Part shown: piece by piece, positions 179-5,709 of the stretch
How the letters are laid out: the number at the start of each line of letters is the position of its first letter
Numbering within the stretch: the stretch's first letter is position 1
NCBI GenBank assembly: GCA_937960725.1
Contig: CALGOY010000261.1
Coordinates: 1-5,709, forward strand
Length of the DNA: 5,709 nt
Origin: an uncultured Bacillota bacterium
Lineage (GTDB): Bacteria > Bacillota > Clostridia > Caldicoprobacterales > UBA3941
Direction of reading: 5' to 3'
Notes under the pieces: model-generated
What the model was told of the DNA's origin: nothing
The model's database searches: none
What the model saw: only the letters and a program-made list of their open reading frames with translations
Made by a program: the position numbers and the translations under genes

Positions 179-2092
179 TTATTGCAACCCTAGTTTTTTT
201 CTCTTTTCCATAATGTGCTTCTCAATACCATCTGCCACTTCTACCGGGTCATCCCCTAGAGCAATTTTTCCCCCTGTTATTTCCTCCACATCTTCTGTCA
301 TTAGCTTTACAAGCTGGGGTGCACCGGTTATAAACGGCGTGGGGGATAAGTGGGTATACGCGCCATAAGCTACAGCAAATATACCATCAATGGTAGCTTT
401 TTGCTCCATCCACTCAGGAGCAGTAACAGCTATTGGTAGGTCGGGTATATCTACATCTAAATGATCCGCAAGAGCGGTAACCAACATGGATACCCTACCA
501 GTATCGGTACAGGTTCCAAAGCTCAATACAGGAGGAATTTTAAGCATGTTGCATACTTCCTTCAATCCATCTCCCGCCATGTTAATAGCATCTAAGTTGC
601 ACAGTCCCGCAACTTCCAGGGCGTGATTGCCGCAGCCTCCGCTTACCACCAGTATGTCCCTCTTAATGAGCTCTTTTGTCAGGTTTACCGTATTCCAATC
701 CTGCGGGCCGTTCCGTAAGGTAGAACAGTTGGCTAGTGCCACTACGCCCTTGATTTTACCAGCGGTAATTACATCCACTAGAGGATCCAATTTATTCCCA
801 AGGGCCTCTAGTACCGCCTCTGTGGAAAAACCAGCGATGGCTTTTTGCACAATTTTAGGTACTTTAGGCGCAACCTTGCCCTTGCGTTTTTTGAAGTTTT
901 CCAAAGCAAGCTCTATCAGCTTGTCCGCCATGGCATCTACTTCCGCAGGATAATATTCAATCTTATGCTTCAGCCCTGGCATATCTACAATAGTGCTTAC
1001 GCTAACCAGGGTTACCTGATATTTTTCAGCATACATATCAATAGCCGGTGGCGAACAGTTCTCCTCCATAGCCATAACGTCTACAGTTCCGGTAGCAAGA
1101 AGGGGTTCGATAGACAGCCAATTACCAATCAAGCCTACAAACACATCATCTACTGGAAACCTTTGCAGAAGCTCCTGTCCCGTTTCAATAGAGCCGACGA
1201 TTCTTAATCCCTTAGCTCCTACAGCTCTAGCCCTCTCCTGAACTTCCGGAGTCTTAGCTTTCTGCAGCGTAGCAACTCCGGCCCAGGGCTGGTGTCCATT
1301 AAACACAATATTTACATAATCCGGATCCATAATCCCAAGGTCAACATTTACCTCATGGGGTTTAGGAGTCCCGAACAATATATCCTGTACCATCTCTAGT
1401 CCAATCTGAGCATTATAGATAGTAGCCAGACCCAAGCGAAGAGCCTTCATCGCTAGTGAAACGTGATTTCCATCTACGTTAGTTAAACAGCTGGCAATGC
1501 AGTTTTGCTCTTCATGAACTACTCCAGCGGGATAAATTCCGATATCTCTCCACACCTTTTTCCGCTTCCTAGGTGCAAAAGCTTCTACCATGAGGTTTGG
1601 TTCCTCAACCCCAATCCTCATCTGAGCTTCTAATACATCCGCTAGCTCTTTTGCCATCTGATTGATGTCTTGATTTGTATTAATTCCTAATTTTTCGCAC
1701 ATCCATTTTAGTTTGCCTACATCAGTGATTTTAAAAGGCGTCTTTCCCTCTGCCGTAGCTCTAAGGGTTCTAAAGGCTTCATAGGCGTGATGGCTGTAGG
1801 TGGCTGCTCCCATTATATTTCTTAGCAGCAGGTTCCGCATAGCCATGGCGTCAGGCCCTATTCCGCAAACTCCCTTATCCTGCCCGCTTTTTTCGCTAAT
1901 CCTACAGGGGCCATTAGAACACAATTGACAGCTGAGTCCCTGCAAGCAAAATTTACACCGAATTTTCTCTTGAAGGACCCACCTGTCAAATACGTTGGAC
2001 ATACCATCTTCACGGATTCGCTTCAGCATCTCTTCTACCGAATCATGATAGCTTACCCTGCCTTCTGTTTTTTCCAGCACAGTTTCTCTCAT
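179..2092 (-). CDS. cooS: CooS-family protein (Ni-CODH-like), deviant type lacking one C-cluster cysteine
   Basis: This 637-residue cytoplasmic protein has the full length and fold signatures of the anaerobic Ni,Fe carbon monoxide dehydrogenase family (homodimers with B, C and D metal clusters). The B-cluster cysteines are visible as C55, C58, C63 and C76. C-cluster ligands are H267 (NGHQP), C346 (ENCSPP), C456 (ANCS), C487 (SGGCGNHAL) and C528 (FGTCTD). The active-site lysine is K565 (EWMEQKA). The sixth ligand, Cys295 in C. hydrogenoformans CODH-II numbering, is missing: the usual GxCCTG is GSIETG at 300-305, and no Cys occurs between 267 and 346. The catalytic His (H93) aligns by eye with Y99. 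The D-cluster pair is also altered (C46 and C49, with S54 where a Cys is usual). Authentic CO oxidation is therefore doubtful. The protein resembles CooS-V, reported to hold an Fe/S/O hybrid cluster and to turn over hydroxylamine slowly. The start at 2092 is supported by AAAGGGG seven bases upstream. It is the last gene of the leftward operon. Family membership is near certain; substrate unknown. Confidence 0.96.
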   Translation of the reverse strand: MRETVLEKTEGRVSYHDSVEEMLKRIREDGMSNVFDRWVLQEKIRCKFCLQGLSCQLCSNGPCRISEKSGQDKGVCGIGPDAMAMRNLLLRNIMGAATYSHHAYEAFRTLRATAEGKTPFKITDVGKLKWMCEKLGINTNQDINQMAKELADVLEAQMRIGVEEPNLMVEAFAPRKRKKVWRDIGIYPAGVVHEEQNCIASCLTNVDGNHVSLAMKALRLGLATIYNAQIGLEMVQDILFGTPKPHEVNVDLGIMDPDYVNIVFNGHQPWAGVATLQKAKTPEVQERARAVGAKGLRIVGSIETGQELLQRFPVDDVFVGLIGNWLSIEPLLATGTVDVMAMEENCSPPAIDMYAEKYQVTLVSVSTIVDMPGLKHKIEYYPAEVDAMADKLIELALENFKKRKGKVAPKVPKIVQKAIAGFSTEAVLEALGNKLDPLVDVITAGKIKGVVALANCSTLRNGPQDWNTVNLTKELIKRDILVVSGGCGNHALEVAGLCNLDAINMAGDGLKEVCNMLKIPPVLSFGTCTDTGRVSMLVTALADHLDVDIPDLPIAVTAPEWMEQKATIDGIFAVAYGAYTHLSPTPFITGAPQLVKLMTEDVEEITGGKIALGDDPVEVADGIEKHIMEKRKKLGLQ

Positions 2093-2093
2093 C

Positions 2094-2155
2094 CATAATC
2101 CCCTTTCTAAGAGTTTCTTCCCCTAAAAAGTTTGCCCCAAATGGGTGGGATTATG
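2094..2155 (-). promoter_or_regulatory. Inverted repeat able to sequester the cooS ribosome binding site
   Basis: In the gap between the binding-protein gene and cooS, the minus strand carries CATAATCCC (plus 2147-2155) and GGGATTATG (plus 2094-2102), a perfect 9-bp inverted repeat with a 44-base loop. The downstream arm covers most of the G-run of the cooS ribosome binding site and reaches to one base before the start codon. Pairing would hide the site in the mRNA. A short, weak CCCA/TGGG pairing is possible within the loop. I recognise no riboswitch class. A regulatory role is inference. Confidence 0.4.
2100..2106 (-). promoter_or_regulatory. Ribosome binding site of cooS
   Basis: On the minus strand, AAAGGGG lies seven bases before the ATG at 2092. 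It is one base different from AAAGGAG. It fixes the cooS start and lies partly inside the right arm of an inverted repeat that could mask it. Confidence 0.7.
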
Positions 2156-2170
2156 AGTTTAGTTAATAAA

Positions 2171-3226
2171 TTACTCTTGAAAGCACTCCGGGTATATTAT
2201 CTTAGCAAGATATTCGTAGCTTTCTCCCCACCTTGCATTAGGTTTATAGTGGAATAATTCCTTTGTCAAGATTATATACCGATCATTCTTAACAGCGGAC
2301 AAATTGTTCCAAGCTGGATTCTTTTGTATTCCGTTTTTAAGAGCTTCTATAGCCTTTTCACTATCTCCCATGGTAATTACAAATATATAATCGGGATCTT
2401 CTTCTATAACTTCCTCTATGCTCAAGTCCTCCAACAGGGACCGATGCTTCGACGCAATATTAAATGTCCCTAAATCCTCCAGAATTTTGCAGGCCATGTG
2501 GTCATCGCTTTTAGCCTTTGCCCCACTGGAAAATGCCCGAATAAATAAAACAGTCGGCTCTTTAGATTTATCTATTTTAGATAAAACATCTTCGATTTGT
2601 TTTTGAACCTTTAGCCCATTTTCTTCGTACAGCTCTTTATTGCCCGTTATATCGGTACAAATATCCAGCATATTTAAATAGTCTTCGAAATATTCTACCT
2701 TGAAAAAAGCATGGGGGATGTTAAGGTTCTCAAGAGTTTCCGATATTTTTACATGGTTCTCAATGTCCGGTGAAAGCAAAACAAAATCCGGCGATAAAGC
2801 TAATACCTCTTCCAAGTTGGGGTCTTTCACAGTACCTACGATTTTAGTTTCTTCAGTTACATTCATCCGGCCCTGGGTTATTACATCATCCGTAACTCCT
2901 ACCAACTGACCTCCTGCTAAAAGCCAGGTTTCTGCATAGGAACCCATCAAAGCCACTACCCTCTCAGGTTTCTGCTCTAAAATTACGGTATTTGTAAGGT
3001 CGTCTGTAAATGTGTAATAGGGCTCTTCTTCGCTGATTTTTGCATCATCGACATTGTTTCGATTAGTATTGGTTTGATTAGCACTGCTCTGATCGGTACT
3101 GCTTTGATTGTCCTGCTTGTCTTCGCCCTTTGGCCCACTGCTACAGGCCGCTAGGGATAAAATAACAAAGCAAATCAATAGTACAATAGCAGGCAATCGG
3201 TATTTATTTCTATTTTTTGTTAGCAT
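2171..3226 (-). CDS. ABC-transporter substrate-binding lipoprotein, Fe3+-siderophore/cobalamin (PF01497-like) family
   Basis: This 351-residue protein has a basic N-terminus, a hydrophobic stretch (about 11-27) and a lipobox L25-A-A-C28, so it should be a lipoprotein tethered outside the cytoplasmic membrane. A hydrophilic linker rich in S, T, N and Q (about 29-65) precedes the binding domain (about 70-350). Family-type features include TFTDDLTNTVIL near 72, KPERVVAL (86-93), LSPDFVLLSP (144-153), a long central helix region, and the closing NPAWNNLSAVKNDRYI (303-318) with YPECF near the end. This family delivers iron-siderophores, haem, cobalamin and related chelates to BtuCD/FhuBG-type permeases. 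No permease or ATPase gene is visible here, so it is an orphan binding protein. The ligand cannot be read from sequence. Its ATG overlaps the stop of the upstream siroheme gene by seven bases (ATGCTAA), and its ribosome binding site lies within that gene, which implies translational coupling. Confidence 0.9.
   Translation of the reverse strand: MLTKNRNKYRLPAIVLLICFVILSLAACSSGPKGEDKQDNQSSTDQSSANQTNTNRNNVDDAKISEEEPYYTFTDDLTNTVILEQKPERVVALMGSYAETWLLAGGQLVGVTDDVITQGRMNVTEETKIVGTVKDPNLEEVLALSPDFVLLSPDIENHVKISETLENLNIPHAFFKVEYFEDYLNMLDICTDITGNKELYEENGLKVQKQIEDVLSKIDKSKEPTVLFIRAFSSGAKAKSDDHMACKILEDLGTFNIASKHRSLLEDLSIEEVIEEDPDYIFVITMGDSEKAIEALKNGIQKNPAWNNLSAVKNDRYIILTKELFHYKPNARWGESYEYLAKIIYPECFQE
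3061..3105 (-). repeat. Degenerate 15-bp tandem repeat encoding the lipoprotein linker
   Basis: Three adjacent 15-bp units on the plus strand begin GATTAGTATT (3061), GATTAGCACT (3076) and GATCGGTACT (3091), with more diverged copies on both sides (about 3046-3060 and from 3106). They encode five-residue units in the linker after the lipid anchor: NQSST, DQSSA, NQTNT and NRNNV (residues 40-59). This looks like local slippage expansion of a flexible tether and has no separate function that I can see. Confidence 0.75.
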
Positions 3227-4155
3227 GTAGCACCTCCGACTGTTTCTTCTTCCAATATCTCTTCTTTGCGTCTTAAAAGATTATCGGATACCAGCATCTT
3301 TTCTACCTTTTCTACACCAAGCCTATCTACAGTTGTTGCAAATCGCTCTCCAGATATACCTTTATGCTTGTATAACAAAATTGCTTTTTCTACCACATCT
3401 AGCACTTCATCTTTTGCAAATAGGGTTTTAAGAGGTGAACCTATTCGTATCCTTTTACCCCATCTGCCACCTACATAAACTTTATATAACTGCTCTCCAT
3501 CAGGTATAGCCTTGAAAGGACATTTTGCCACACATAGTCCACAATTGTTGCAGATTGATTTATCAATTACCAGTTTTCCATCTTCAACCCGGGCTGCATC
3601 CATAGGACAAGCTTCTACAACGCTACACTTAGCACAACCCTTACACAAATCGGGATTATAATTCGGAACTTTTTGACCTACGATTCCTAAATCGTTTAGA
3701 TCTGGCTTTACACAGTTGTTGGGACATCCCCCTACCCCAATCTTAAATTTATGAGGAAGCACTACATCTGCGTAGCCTTCATAGAATCGCTTATGGATTT
3801 CCTTCGCTAACCCCTGGGTATCGATGTTGCCAAATACACAAACCGTACCCTTACATGCTACCACGGGACGGACTTTAGAGCCTGTTCCTCCCGTAACCAT
3901 TCCTTCTCTTGCAATATATTCTTTTACCTTCTCAATATCTTCAAACTTAATTCCAGGAATTTCTACTGTGAGCCTCGAAGTGAATGAAATATCCCCATTT
4001 CCAAATTTCTCAGCAACTTCGCTCAAATTTCTAAGCTGCTTGTAGTTTAATACCCCGTTTTCTGTAATAATCCTTGCAGAAAAGTGTACTCCATCCTTGT
4101 TTGACAAAAATCCTTCGCTTTTTACTTTTTTTCTTTGTTCTTCTGTAATATTCAT
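3220..4155 (-). CDS. Siroheme nitrite/sulfite reductase-like protein with inserted 2x[4Fe-4S] ferredoxin domain
   Basis: This protein is 311 residues long from the preferred ATG. Domains in order are a ferredoxin-like half domain of nitrite/sulfite reductases (about 15-85: FLSNKDGVHFSARII, LTVEIPG); the siroheme-[4Fe-4S] segment with C101-x4-C106 (ACKGTVCVFGN) and C144-x3-C148 (GGCPNNC); an inserted ferredoxin domain with C171, C174, C177, C183 and C202, C205, C208, C212; and a return to the reductase fold (VYVGGRWGKRIRIG, 227-239). This is one half of the duplicated reductase unit, as in the small assimilatory-type, AsrC and DsrA-like proteins, so it may act as a homo-oligomer. Six-electron reduction of sulfite or nitrite, or related electron transfer, is possible. 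The substrate is not decided by sequence. The first cysteine pair has spacing x4, while x5 is what I recall for classic sulfite reductases. A TTG at 4170 would add five residues but overlaps the GGGGG run (4164-4168) that serves the ATG eight bases on. First gene of the operon, divergent from lysR. Confidence 0.9.
   Translation of the reverse strand: MNITEEQRKKVKSEGFLSNKDGVHFSARIITENGVLNYKQLRNLSEVAEKFGNGDISFTSRLTVEIPGIKFEDIEKVKEYIAREGMVTGGTGSKVRPVVACKGTVCVFGNIDTQGLAKEIHKRFYEGYADVVLPHKFKIGVGGCPNNCVKPDLNDLGIVGQKVPNYNPDLCKGCAKCSVVEACPMDAARVEDGKLVIDKSICNNCGLCVAKCPFKAIPDGEQLYKVYVGGRWGKRIRIGSPLKTLFAKDEVLDVVEKAILLYKHKGISGERFATTVDRLGVEKVEKMLVSDNLLRRKEEILEEETVGGATC
3233..3237 (-). promoter_or_regulatory. 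Ribosome binding site of the binding-protein gene, inside the upstream gene
   Basis: On the minus strand, GGAGG is followed after six bases by the ATG at 3226. It lies in the last codons of the siroheme-protein gene, whose TAA (3222-3220) overlaps this ATG. The arrangement supports the chosen start and coupled translation of the two genes. Confidence 0.85.
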
Positions 4156-4190
4156 CAAAGTAACCCCCAATTTTTTTATATTTTGATTCG

Positions 4191-4237: not shown

Positions 4238-4273
4238 AATAATAGGTAATTAGTTATGGTAATTTATTTTAAA

Positions 4274-4279
4274 AGGAGA
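4274..4279 (+). promoter_or_regulatory. Ribosome binding site deciding the LysR start
   Basis: AGGAGA lies six bases before the ATG at 4286. An in-frame ATG at 4256 would add ten residues but has no ribosome binding site and lies upstream of this one. The resulting N-terminus (MTIRHLKIF) is the usual LysR beginning. Confidence 0.88.
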
Positions 4280-4285
4280 TTTTAT

Positions 4286-5188
4286 ATGACCATCAGACAT
4301 TTAAAAATTTTTATTGCTGTATGTGAATATGGAAAAATGAGTACCGCAGCTAAGAAGCTTCATATCTCGCAACCTTCTGTAAGTCAGGCTATTGCCCAGA
4401 TTGAACAATATTACGGGATAAAGCTGTTTGAACGTTTGTCTAAAAAACTCTACATTACTGAAGCCGGTCAGAGATTGCTAAATTATGCCCGGCACATAGT
4501 TGCTCTATTCGATGAAATGGACAAGAATATGAATAATGAAGCTAAAAATATCACTCTAAAGATAGGGGCAACAATAACCGTTGGTACCTGCGTGCTAAAC
4601 GATATATTGCAATCATTTGAATCAAGACATGAAGATGTTGAGACTAAAATATTTATACAAAACACCCATATCATAGAGGAAATGATATTAAGAAGCGAGC
4701 TGGATGTAGGGATGGTGGAAGGGGATATAAAAAGCCAGGACATAGTTAAAATCCCCATCCTTTCCGATGAGCTGGTACTAGTTTGCTCCAGCTCCCATGA
4801 GTTATCGAAGTTTAAAAGCATAGATATTAAAAAACTTCAAAATCTAGATTTTATCCTTAGGGAGAAAGGCAGCGGTACAAGGGAATTGTTTGAAAATGCC
4901 CTTGACAGGGCAGGGGTTACCGTTAATGAAAAGTGGGTTTGCAACAACTCAGAAGCAATTAAAAACGCGGTAATAAATAACCAAGGCTTGACCGTTATAT
5001 CCAAGATGTTGGTTGAAAAAGAATTAAAAGAAAAAAAGCTCCACACTATTTCAATAAATAATGTGAAGCTTACCAGAAAATTTCACGTGGCATATCATAA
5101 AAATAAATATCTGTCAGACCCCTTAAAAAGCTTTATACAGACTTGCATTCATTGCAGCCGTACTCAGGAAACTGCCTGTCGCTCATGA
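4286..5188 (+). CDS. LysR-family transcriptional regulator
   Basis: This 300-residue regulator has the normal family length. The N-terminal winged helix-turn-helix begins MTIRHLKIFIAVCEYG, and its core (about 18-37) includes STAAKKLHISQPSVSQAI, followed by the wing and linker helix (LFERLSKKLYITEAG). The effector-binding domain spans about 88-285 and carries REKGSGTRE (192-200), a sequence seen in LysR proteins of the CysL/YeiE/CbbR kind. B. subtilis CysL activates the sulfite reductase genes cysJI, so control of the divergent siroheme-reductase operon is a reasonable inference but is not shown. The ligand is unknown. The last 14 residues (CIHCSRTQETACRS) extend beyond the usual LysR end. Their coding region, together with the preceding few codons, overlaps the 3' end of the convergent reductase gene by 56 bp. 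C287, C290 and C298 lie in this tail. No terminator is visible at its end. Confidence 0.95.
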   Translation: MTIRHLKIFIAVCEYGKMSTAAKKLHISQPSVSQAIAQIEQYYGIKLFERLSKKLYITEAGQRLLNYARHIVALFDEMDKNMNNEAKNITLKIGATITVGTCVLNDILQSFESRHEDVETKIFIQNTHIIEEMILRSELDVGMVEGDIKSQDIVKIPILSDELVLVCSSSHELSKFKSIDIKKLQNLDFILREKGSGTRELFENALDRAGVTVNEKWVCNNSEAIKNAVINNQGLTVISKMLVEKELKEKKLHTISINNVKLTRKFHVAYHKNKYLSDPLKSFIQTCIHCSRTQETACRS

Positions 5189-5709
5189 TAGATTCGTACA
5201 GGCGGTAGCCTCCGCTTAAATTATAAGCGTCGAAGCCATGGCCCATCAGTATACGGCAGGCAATGTAGCTTCTTAAGCCGCTGTGACAGTGTACGTAGAC
5301 GGGCTTTGACTTATCCAGCTTATCGATACTTTCCCTCAAGTTATCTAGAGGTATATTGATGAAGCCGTCTATCTTTCCTCTAGCCACCTCTGCCGGCGTT
5401 CTTACGTCCAAGAGGGTTACACTTCCGTCGCGGGGCAGCTTCTCCACATCATGCCAATGAAAGTTCTTGACTAGGCCTTTTATGGTGTTCTCAATTACAA
5501 ACCCCACCATGTTTACAGGATCCTTTGCAGAGGAAAAGGGTGGAGCGTAGCACAGTTCAAGTTCTGCCAGATCAAATCCTGTCATACCGGCTCTAATAGC
5601 GGTAGCCAATACATCGCAGCGCTTATCAACCCCATCAAAACCTACAATCTGAGCTCCCAATATCCTGCCCGTATCTTTTTCAAATATAGTTTTTATAGAC
5701 ATATTTCTA
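5133..5709 (-). CDS. CoA-disulfide/persulfide reductase (NADH oxidase-like flavoprotein) with C-terminal rhodanese domain, 5' part cut by window
   Basis: Only the last 191 codons are inside the window. The frame stays open to the edge (Arg-Asn before the first Met at 5702), so this Met is internal, not the start. The visible part begins in the dimerisation domain of the pyridine nucleotide-disulfide oxidoreductase family: MSIKTIFEKDTGRILGAQIVG, then the signature YAPPFSSAKDPVNMVGF (52-68, counting from that Met). A rhodanese domain follows (about 83-172) with LLDVRTPAE (97-105) and the active-site loop C139-HSGLR. Such fusions (CoADR-RHD, Npsr) use FAD and NAD(P)H to reduce CoA disulfide, CoA persulfide or polysulfide. 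The rhodanese Cys carries the persulfide sulfur. A C-terminal C183-x2-C186 pair is present. The missing N-terminal part should hold the FAD and NADH domains and the redox-active Cys. It converges on lysR and overlaps its end by 56 bp. Function in the family is well supported; exact substrate is not. Confidence 0.93.
   Translation of the reverse strand, partial: RNMSIKTIFEKDTGRILGAQIVGFDGVDKRCDVLATAIRAGMTGFDLAELELCYAPPFSSAKDPVNMVGFVIENTIKGLVKNFHWHDVEKLPRDGSVTLLDVRTPAEVARGKIDGFINIPLDNLRESIDKLDKSKPVYVHCHSGLRSYIACRILMGHGFDAYNLSGGYRLYESIMSDRQFPEYGCNECKSV

What the first reader, a model, noticed from the sequence alone, without database searches (positions are those of the whole stretch)
1177..1195. 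CooS protein lacks the C-cluster cysteine equivalent to Cys295, a hybrid-cluster CooS-V-like enzyme
Seen: in the 637-residue CooS, the GxCCTG motif is GSIETG (residues 300-305), and no cysteine occurs from H267 to C346, while the other five C-cluster ligands and K565 are kept. Known: as I recall the published work on CooS-V of C. hydrogenoformans, a CooS lacking this kind of ligand binds an Fe/S/O hybrid cluster, shows no CO or CO2 activity and slowly turns over hydroxylamine. Inference: this gene, which would be auto-annotated as CO dehydrogenase, is probably not one. Glu303 or a nearby side chain may ligate an oxo-containing cluster.
Basis: partly seen in the sequence, partly recalled or inferred. 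Interest (0 to 1): 0.78.

Follow-up and report, generated by a model that had tools for sequence, protein, structure and literature searches.

The report
Nickel-less CooS-V protein, likely spore-linked
This gene, which annotation software scores as a carbon monoxide dehydrogenase, encodes a close relative of a known protein (CooS-V) with glutamate in place of one cysteine of the nickel site, so it likely holds an iron-sulfur-oxygen cluster and would not use carbon monoxide; the DNA in front of such genes resembles promoters used inside developing spores, which hints at a job for a family that has none yet.

Summary
The 637-aa CooS (2092..179, minus strand) has G-S-I-E303-T-G where Ni-CO dehydrogenases have GxCCTG. 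E303 aligns with Glu295 of CooS-V of Carboxydothermus hydrogenoformans (7b7q, 62% identity); the other cluster ligands are kept. In a tree, window and CooS-V fall in one clade of 81 Glu-bearing rows (support 100). It is a new member of a published family (CooS-V, group D-1); nickel and CO activity are unlikely.

Two points go beyond the print I found. (1) Glu-type cooS genes share an upstream element, roughly [A/G]NATA-N15-GNNNAAACTT. Matrices from spoIIR and SASP genes of the same genomes score cooS (AUC 0.76-0.80) like the held-out forespore genes spoVT (0.80-0.84) and gpr (0.70-0.71), and above mother-cell spoIVA (0.57-0.59) and other CODH genes (0.38-0.41). Forespore expression is inferred, not shown; the window's own copy is only a fair match. 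(2) In 35 of 80 genomes the Glu-type is the only gene matching the CODH model, against a published statement.

The window's neighbours (siroheme-reductase-like, binding protein) do not recur near cooS (0 of 80 loci).

The parts
179..2092 (-). cooS, Glu-type (CooS-V / structural group D-1), 637 aa
1178..1195 (-). G300-S-I-E303-T-G in place of GxCCTG; E303 codon at 1184-1186
1292..1294 (-). H267, cluster ligand (His259 of CooS-V)
   Evidence: role from PMC9311411
1055..1057 (-). C346, cluster ligand (Cys338 of CooS-V)
725..727 (-). C456, cluster ligand (Cys449 of CooS-V)
632..634 (-). C487, cluster ligand (Cys480 of CooS-V)
509..511 (-). C528, cluster ligand; its equivalent Cys521 carries the persulfide in oxidised CooS-V
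   Evidence: role from PMC9311411
404..406 (-). E563, equivalent of Glu556, a further hybrid-cluster ligand of CooS-V; also kept in the Cys-bearing clade-D-like rows
1946..1957 (-). C46 and C49, bridging [2Fe-2S] cluster (C49 = Cys41 of CooS-V; Gly in the other CODH rows compared)
1865..1930 (-). C55, C58, C63, C76: [4Fe-4S] B-cluster motif
2127..2156 (-). conserved upstream element, forespore-promoter-like: CATA at 2152-2155, GGGGCAAACTTT at 2127-2138; fair match only
2171..3226 (-). neighbour: lipoprotein-like periplasmic binding protein (Peripla_BP_2); not conserved near cooS
3220..4170 (-). neighbour: siroheme nitrite/sulfite-reductase-like protein with ferredoxin domain; not conserved near cooS

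Best explanation
[quoted passage not shown] Shown here: the substitution, the kept remaining ligands, the kinship with CooS-V, and an upstream element shared by most Glu-type cooS genes examined. Inferred from the CooS-V structures and assays: E303 and H267 hold the mobile iron, C528 switches between thiolate and persulfide and so opens or closes the substrate channel, electrons enter through the [2Fe-2S] (C46, C49) and [4Fe-4S] clusters, and the reaction is a low-potential reduction of a small molecule such as hydroxylamine or another N- or O-oxide. Also inferred, and separate (my probability about 0.55): the gene is transcribed from a sigma-F/sigma-G-type promoter in the forespore of endospore formers, so the protein would act in the developing or germinating spore, most plausibly as a scavenger of reactive nitrogen or oxygen species rather than in C1 metabolism. 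The confidence below is for the first sentence.
For: E303 aligns with Glu295 of 7b7q and with the second Cys of GxCC in 6t7j, 6elq, 6b6v; 62% identity to CooS-V; 21 ligand and second-shell positions identical to 79 of 80 related loci, and to CooS-V except at 101; Glu rows form one clade with support 100; model closest to CooS-V. CooS-V itself has no CO activity and no Ni (PMC9311411). For the forespore part: shared upstream motif, matrix tests with held-out forespore genes and mother-cell and CODH controls, reverse test, spore genes in the genomes tested: SASP 34 of 34, GPR 33, spoIIR 33, spoVT 33, spoIVA 33 of 34.
Against: Nothing was measured on this protein; hydroxylamine is a poor substrate even for CooS-V, so the true reaction is unknown. 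No genome is held for the window, so its own spore genes were not checked. The window's upstream site is only at the 95th percentile of 852 other genes, the 94th-97th of 510; a first matrix chose another site; a strict expression misses the window and 32 others of 78, and is itself met by few known forespore genes (SASP 9 of 59, spoIIR 4 of 29, spoVT 5 of 30). PMC4895105 (passages) says that all three CODH genes of C. autoethanogenum are expressed in growing cells.
Confidence: 0.88

Rival explanations
1. The protein is still a working Ni-CO dehydrogenase in which Glu303 serves as ligand in place of the cysteine.
For: All other C-cluster ligands and K565 are kept; it passes the NCBIfam CODH model at 914.7 bits, cut-off 478. 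PMC6344411 (passage) mentions genetic hints of CO oxidation by a group D-1 protein in Methanosarcina acetivorans.
Against: CooS-V, with the same ligand set, shows no CO activity and no Ni; C295E and C295A variants of CODH-II lose Ni and CO oxidation (PMC9311411). In 35 of 80 genomes it is the only match to the CODH model, and none of the 15 of these not titled MAG has an acetyl-CoA synthase match.
Confidence: 0.04
2. The upstream element is not a forespore promoter but the operator or promoter of a dedicated regulator or another sigma factor, for instance one that answers redox or nitrosative stress.
For: The cooS version is more uniform than the general forespore motifs and hardly found before other genes: the strict pattern had 26 matches in 14 genomes, 13 for the reversed pattern, six of the 26 at cooS; of five matches directly followed by an ORF in my scan four were cooS (two cooS sites were missed by that scan). 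A cooS gene of C. difficile (cd0174) is sigma-B-controlled and linked to aerobic/nitrosative stress (PMC7494833, passages; not checked whether it is Glu-type).
Against: The -35-like box varies as ACATA, GTATA, GAATA, as in spoIIR (TGTATA, TGAATA), and forespore-trained matrices recognise cooS but not the other CODH genes of the same genomes.
Confidence: 0.3
3. cooS is the last gene of an operon with the siroheme-reductase-like and binding-protein genes and serves sulfite, nitrite or iron metabolism in this organism.
For: The three genes lie on one strand with an overlap and a 78-nt gap; the best-scoring sigma-A-like site of the window lies before the reductase gene, though such sites are no more frequent than in shuffled DNA (14 against 14.0).
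Against: Neither neighbour occurs in the flanks (up to 10 kb, often less) of cooS in any of 80 related loci; no ORF family recurs in more than 13 of 80; the conserved element lies inside the 78-nt gap, so cooS likely has its own start.
Confidence: 0.08

Closest known systems
CooS-V of Carboxydothermus hydrogenoformans (PDB 7b7q and 7b7t, 7b95, 7b97, 7b9a); structural group D-1 of PMC6344411
   Same: Glu at the Cys295 position, Cys49 (Cys41), Tyr99 at the acid-base His position, Glu563, all other ligands, fold (TM 0.97), clade
   Different: 62% identity; Met-Tyr before Glu556 reads Trp-Met here, EENC for DMNC before C346, His for Tyr at 101. Biochemistry known only for CooS-V. The upstream element was not looked for in C. 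hydrogenoformans.
Ni,Fe-CO dehydrogenases of the CooS type (for example 6t7j, 6elq, 6b6v)
   Same: fold, B-cluster, five of six C-cluster ligands
   Different: have Cys in place of Glu303; the 59 Cys-bearing rows that I compared all have Gly at 49 where readable, and their upstream DNA shows no forespore-like element (AUC 0.38-0.41 for 54 usable, one of them the Asp row)
Hybrid cluster protein (HCP, hydroxylamine reductase)
   Same: same Pfam family (Prismane); by PMC6344411 the active-site residues of group D-1 equal those of HCP
   Different: only 49.7 bits with the HCP model, cut-off 360.8; HCP genes coexist in 36 of 36 genomes searched; CooS-V turns hydroxylamine over far more slowly (PMC9311411)
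Forespore sigma-F/sigma-G promoters (spoIIR, SASP, spoVT genes of the same genomes)
   Same: two-box layout NATA-(about 15 nt)-GNNNAA; cooS scores as held-out forespore genes do
   Different: cooS boxes are more uniform (CATA, AAACTT) and the strict cooS form is rare before known forespore genes

Membership tests
CooS-V / structural group D-1 | Glu in place of the first C-cluster Cys (Cys295) | tested here: met
   E303
CooS-V / structural group D-1 | remaining ligands His259, Cys338, Cys449, Cys480, Cys521, and Glu556 | tested here: met
   H267, C346, C456, C487, C528, E563
CooS-V / structural group D-1 | Cys41 of the bridging [2Fe-2S] cluster (Gly41>Cys exchange) | tested here: met
   C49 in window and 79 of 80 loci (L076 unreadable), Gly in the 59 readable other CODH rows
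CooS-V / structural group D-1 | Tyr at the acid-base His position, Lys kept | tested here: met
   Y99, K565
CooS-V / structural group D-1 | in one clade with CooS-V | tested here: met
   81 Glu rows, support 100, quick tree without bootstrap; 16 Glu rows, support 100
CooS-V / structural group D-1 | Fe/S/O hybrid cluster, no Ni, no CO activity | not testable with these tools
   needs purified protein
Ni,Fe-CO dehydrogenase | complete C-cluster motif, five Cys and one His | tested here: not met
   Cys295 position is E303
Hybrid cluster protein (TIGR01703) | score above the curated cut-off of 360.8 bits | tested here: not met
   49.7 bits
Forespore (sigma-F/sigma-G) regulon | promoter of forespore type upstream | tested here: inconclusive
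   family-wide support; window's own site 94th-97th percentile, missed by the strict expression
Forespore (sigma-F/sigma-G) regulon | expression depends on sigF or sigG | not testable with these tools
   needs transcript data; the searches listed no paper in which I saw such a link

The most novel reading that the evidence does not exclude
In endospore-forming Firmicutes, CooS-V-type hybrid-cluster proteins are forespore proteins: a CO dehydrogenase scaffold that lost nickel was recruited into the sigma-F/sigma-G programme, where it protects or re-reduces the developing or germinating anaerobic spore. That would explain why the gene stands alone, seems dispensable for growth on CO, occurs in species with no other CODH gene, and has had no known job.
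Probability: 0.55. Interest if true: 0.75.

Novelty: new member of a known kind. Interest (0 to 1): 0.48.

Why it matters
Annotation scores this protein as the catalytic subunit of CO dehydrogenase, far above the curated NCBIfam cut-off. [quoted passage not shown] one residue (Glu after GSI) is enough to tell. The function of the family is open: the 2022 structure paper found only a slow substrate (PMC9311411) and the 2026 context survey found no pattern for its clade (PMC13056359, passages). If the promoter reading holds, the question becomes directly testable: make spores with and without the gene and ask what changes.

Tried and rejected
Function from neighbours: rejected. SIR- and SBP-like neighbours in 0 of 80 loci, a weak LysR match in 6, CoADR-rhodanese in 1; no ORF family in more than 13 of 80. 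Viral contigs: no relative confirmed. Plasmids: 2 records, 29-32% identity. Rfam on the window: one hit, a microRNA family at 23.7 bits against a gathering score of 99, not upstream of cooS. CooS-V as a stand-in for HCP: rejected, HCP over its cut-off in 36 of 36 genomes searched. A long SASP matrix with flanks gave AUC 0.755 and pointed to another site in the window; I then used short -35/-10 boxes with flexible spacing, so the form of the matrix was chosen after a first result. Checks made afterwards: new genes spoVT and spoIVA, a stricter reference set and three seeds. GPR upstreams gave no clean motif of their own. The strict cooS pattern did not lead to other spore genes in 14 genomes. 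No whole genome is held for the window.

Papers: PMC9311411, main text parts 1-4 of 5 read (part 5 not opened). PMC3174212: term search without hits. Other listed papers: title and start of abstract at most. The sigma-F/sigma-G consensus that prompted the idea was recalled; PMC3789822 says only that the C. difficile consensus sequences resemble those of B. subtilis and each other, with a G before and an A after the -10 box. Names such as CODH-II numbering come from the papers; gene roles of spoIIR, SASP, gpr, spoVT (forespore) and spoIVA (mother cell) are recalled knowledge, partly borne out by passages (gpr, spoVT, sspA).

Full report
What is there. The window's minus strand carries one 637-aa ORF, 2092..179, that passes the NCBIfam model for anaerobic CO dehydrogenase at 914.7 bits (cut-off 478) and reaches only 49.7 bits with the hybrid-cluster-protein model (cut-off 360.8). 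Residues 300-305 read G-S-I-E-T-G at 1178-1195; E303 is codon 1184-1186; between C202 and C346 there is no cysteine.

What it is. Against solved structures the best match is CooS-V of C. hydrogenoformans, 7b7q (E 2.6e-265), then 6t7j (E 3.7e-137). In the printed alignments E303 stands opposite Glu295 of CooS-V and opposite the second Cys of G-M/I/L-C-C-T-G in 6t7j, 6elq and 6b6v. Identity to CooS-V is 62%. An AlphaFold model (22 aligned sequences, mean pLDDT 88.5) is closest to 7b9a and 7b7q (TM 0.97, rmsd 1.1 A), then 6t7j (TM 0.93, rmsd 2.7 A). I did not inspect atom positions in the model.

Family signature. I compared 80 loci from genome contigs (the best 80 of 451 relatives) and 60 further CODH-family regions from the same genomes (60 of the 83 matches beyond one per genome, fragments included). 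At 21 positions the window and 79 of the 80 loci are identical (C46 C49 C55 C58 C63 C76 Y99 H101 H102 H267 I302 E303 N345 C346 C456 C487 C528 M562 E563 Q564 K565); L076 lacks the N-terminus and agrees in the rest; CooS-V differs only at 101. In the 60 other regions residue 303 is Cys in 59 and Asp in one (L185); residue 49 is Gly in the 59 that can be read. A tree of 140 rows (L076 and L175 dropped beforehand) puts the 81 Glu rows, window and CooS-V included, on one side of a branch with SH-aLRT 100; the window's nearest row is L001, a Clostridia metagenome-assembled genome, 88% identical (quick method, no bootstrap, some long branches flagged).

What is known. PMC9311411 (main text parts 1-4 of 5) describes CooS-V as without Ni signal, inactive with CO and CO2, with a [4Fe-3S] cluster when reduced and an oxo-bridged cluster with a cysteine persulfide when oxidised, Glu295 a ligand, hydroxylamine kcat 0.13 per s, and midpoint potentials about 300 mV below those of E. 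coli HCP. PMC6344411 (passages) had already defined the Glu-bearing group D-1 and speculated on HCP-like properties. PMC13056359 (passages) finds no clear context pattern for clade D. The finding is a new member of a known kind.

Distribution. With TIGR01702 at E <= 1e-40, 35 of 80 genomes have a single match, the Glu-type gene itself (16 of 40, 19 of 40). By record titles 15 of the 35 are not MAGs (L002, L008, L019, L021, L032, L034, L037, L043, L052, L057, L066, L068, L073, L079, L080); none of the 15 has a match to the acetyl-CoA synthase model TIGR00316, which rings in 14 of the 36 genomes searched. [quoted passage not shown] this sample contradicts that. Many assemblies are drafts, so single absences may be gaps, hardly all 35. 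HCP is over its cut-off in 36 of 36 genomes, so the Glu-type does not replace HCP.

Context. On the same strand lie a siroheme nitrite/sulfite-reductase-like gene (4170..3220) that overlaps a binding-protein gene (3226..2171), then 78 nt, then cooS; a divergent LysR-type gene (4256-5188) and a CoA-disulfide-reductase/rhodanese fragment (5708..5133) lie beyond. In the flanks held (up to 10 kb, often cut by contig ends) the reductase and binding protein recur in 0 of 80 loci, and no ORF family in more than 13 of 80. The gene is mostly a loner, in line with PMC13056359 (64% of clade D without neighbours).

The upstream element. Expectation-maximisation on 130 nt upstream of 73 dissimilar Glu-type cooS genes (of 78 with enough sequence, of 81 in all) gives AtG.GaAAACTTa.TAt.ga, typically starting 40-50 nt before the start codon; log-likelihood ratio 287 against 66-70 in three shuffled sets. 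A wider model (36-46 nt) reads aTaCATAtTTa.....ttt.atG..aAAacTtt; at width 20 and 150 nt, four sets of other genes from the same loci reach 81-108 against 262. The -35-like box varies as ACATA, GTATA, GAATA. In the window it is CATA at 2152-2155 and GGGGCAAACTTT at 2127-2138, inside the 78-nt gap.

Test of the forespore reading. From the same genomes I took upstream DNA of genes known (recalled) as forespore genes: SASP (59 usable of 60 fetched) and spoIIR (29 usable of 30). Their own motifs are g..TA.taa.ttt.aaa..G.a.AAaaTAatA and TGtATA.Aa.t..aaaa..tgG.AAtaAtt. A matrix trained only on these (73 instances) separates cooS upstreams (78, window included) from 852 other genes with AUC 0.804. 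Held-out forespore genes score 0.839 (spoVT, 30) and 0.714 (gpr, 29 of 30 loci); the mother-cell gene spoIVA 0.594 (30); other CODH-family genes 0.405 (54 of the 60 regions: 53 with Cys, one with Asp). Training genes, not held out: SASP 0.863, spoIIR 0.893. At the 90th percentile of other genes pass cooS 29 of 78, SASP 40 of 59, spoIIR 20 of 29, gpr 11 of 29, spoVT 10 of 30, spoIVA 4 of 30, other CODH 2 of 54. Against 510 genes with ORF-free upstream DNA, over three seeds, cooS gives 0.757-0.800, spoVT 0.796-0.825, gpr 0.702-0.714, spoIVA 0.574-0.577, other CODH 0.382-0.400. The reverse matrix, trained on cooS, favours SASP (0.722), spoIIR (0.701) and gpr (0.611) over other CODH genes (0.466). 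Rows are related by descent, so the p-values in these calls are too small; I rely on the contrasts.

Results against. A first SASP matrix with flanks gave 0.755 and chose another site in the window. The window's own site is at the 95th percentile of 852 genes and the 94th-97th of 510: fair, not decisive. A strict expression for the two boxes is met by 45 of 78 cooS upstreams, not by the window, whose first box begins with T, and by few known forespore genes (SASP 9 of 59, spoIIR 4 of 29, spoVT 5 of 30, gpr 7 of 29), against spoIVA 1 of 30, other CODH 1 of 54, other genes 29 of 852. The strict cooS pattern had 26 matches in 14 genomes against 13 for the reversed pattern; six of the 26 are cooS sites; an ORF with a ribosome-binding site followed directly in five cases, four of them cooS (my scan missed two cooS sites). 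So the cooS version is peculiar to cooS. I give about 0.55 to the forespore reading and 0.3 to a dedicated regulator or another sigma factor. Spore genes are present nearly throughout the 34 genomes tested (SASP 34; GPR, spoIIR, spoVT, spoIVA 33 each), but these are Clostridia and relatives, so that says little by itself; Glu-type genes outside spore formers were not examined.

How it most likely works. Shown by sequence: ligands and kinship. Inferred from CooS-V: E303 and H267 bind the mobile iron, the C528 persulfide gates the channel, electrons come through [2Fe-2S] and [4Fe-4S], and a small oxidised molecule is reduced at low potential. Inferred from the element: the gene is switched on in the forespore. 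A scavenger of reactive nitrogen or oxygen species in the spore, or early in germination, is the simplest job that joins the two. Genetic data fit loosely: inactivating the orphan cooS2 of C. autoethanogenum hardly affects autotrophy, with a lower final density on CO, though the gene is said to be expressed in growing cells (PMC4895105 passages; that cooS2 is the clade D gene is my reading, not checked by sequence; the related C. ragsdalei locus L053 lacks the strict element).

Print. Searches for CooS or CO dehydrogenase together with sporulation or spore terms listed no paper in which I saw such a link; three listed papers were opened at the end without one. The library lacks most subscription journals, and of most listed papers I saw only the listing.

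Noticed in passing
L185:265-2163 (+); P0121-P0154, P0236: A second loss of the same ligand: a subfamily with Asp (GSMDTGQE) at the Cys295 position and Gly at 49. 35 of the 120 homologues of L185 listed have Asp, 85 have Cys. In a 73-row tree the 17 sampled Asp rows of this subfamily form one clade (support 100) nested among Cys-bearing clade-D-like rows, apart from the Glu clade; P0236 is a further, separate Asp case. The table of PMC6344411 seen lists no Asp at this position; an engineered C295D CODH-II structure exists (7zx3). L185 shows no forespore-like site by the strict expression.
   Followed up: partly
genomes of L001-L080: In 35 of 80 genomes the Glu-type is the only match to the CODH model; 15 of these are not titled MAG and have no acetyl-CoA synthase match. 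Contradicts the statement in PMC9311411 that such genes occur only beside other CODH genes.
   Followed up: yes
window 3220-4170 (-) and 5133-5708 (-); L081: The siroheme-reductase-like gene has a CoA-disulfide-reductase/rhodanese gene nearby both here and next to its 56%-identical relative in Clostridium sp. CX1 (L081), which hints at a sulfur-related unit independent of cooS.
   Followed up: no
window 4256-5188 (+): Divergent LysR-type regulator, best NCBIfam matches LysR_Sec_metab (215.3 bits, cut-off 250) and YeiE (199.7, cut-off 480), both below cut-off; a candidate regulator of the reductase unit.
   Followed up: no
[quoted passage not shown]
   Followed up: partly
L046: A record titled Calditrichales bacterium carries a Glu-type cooS that groups closely with Clostridia rows: recent transfer or a mislabelled assembly.
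   Followed up: no
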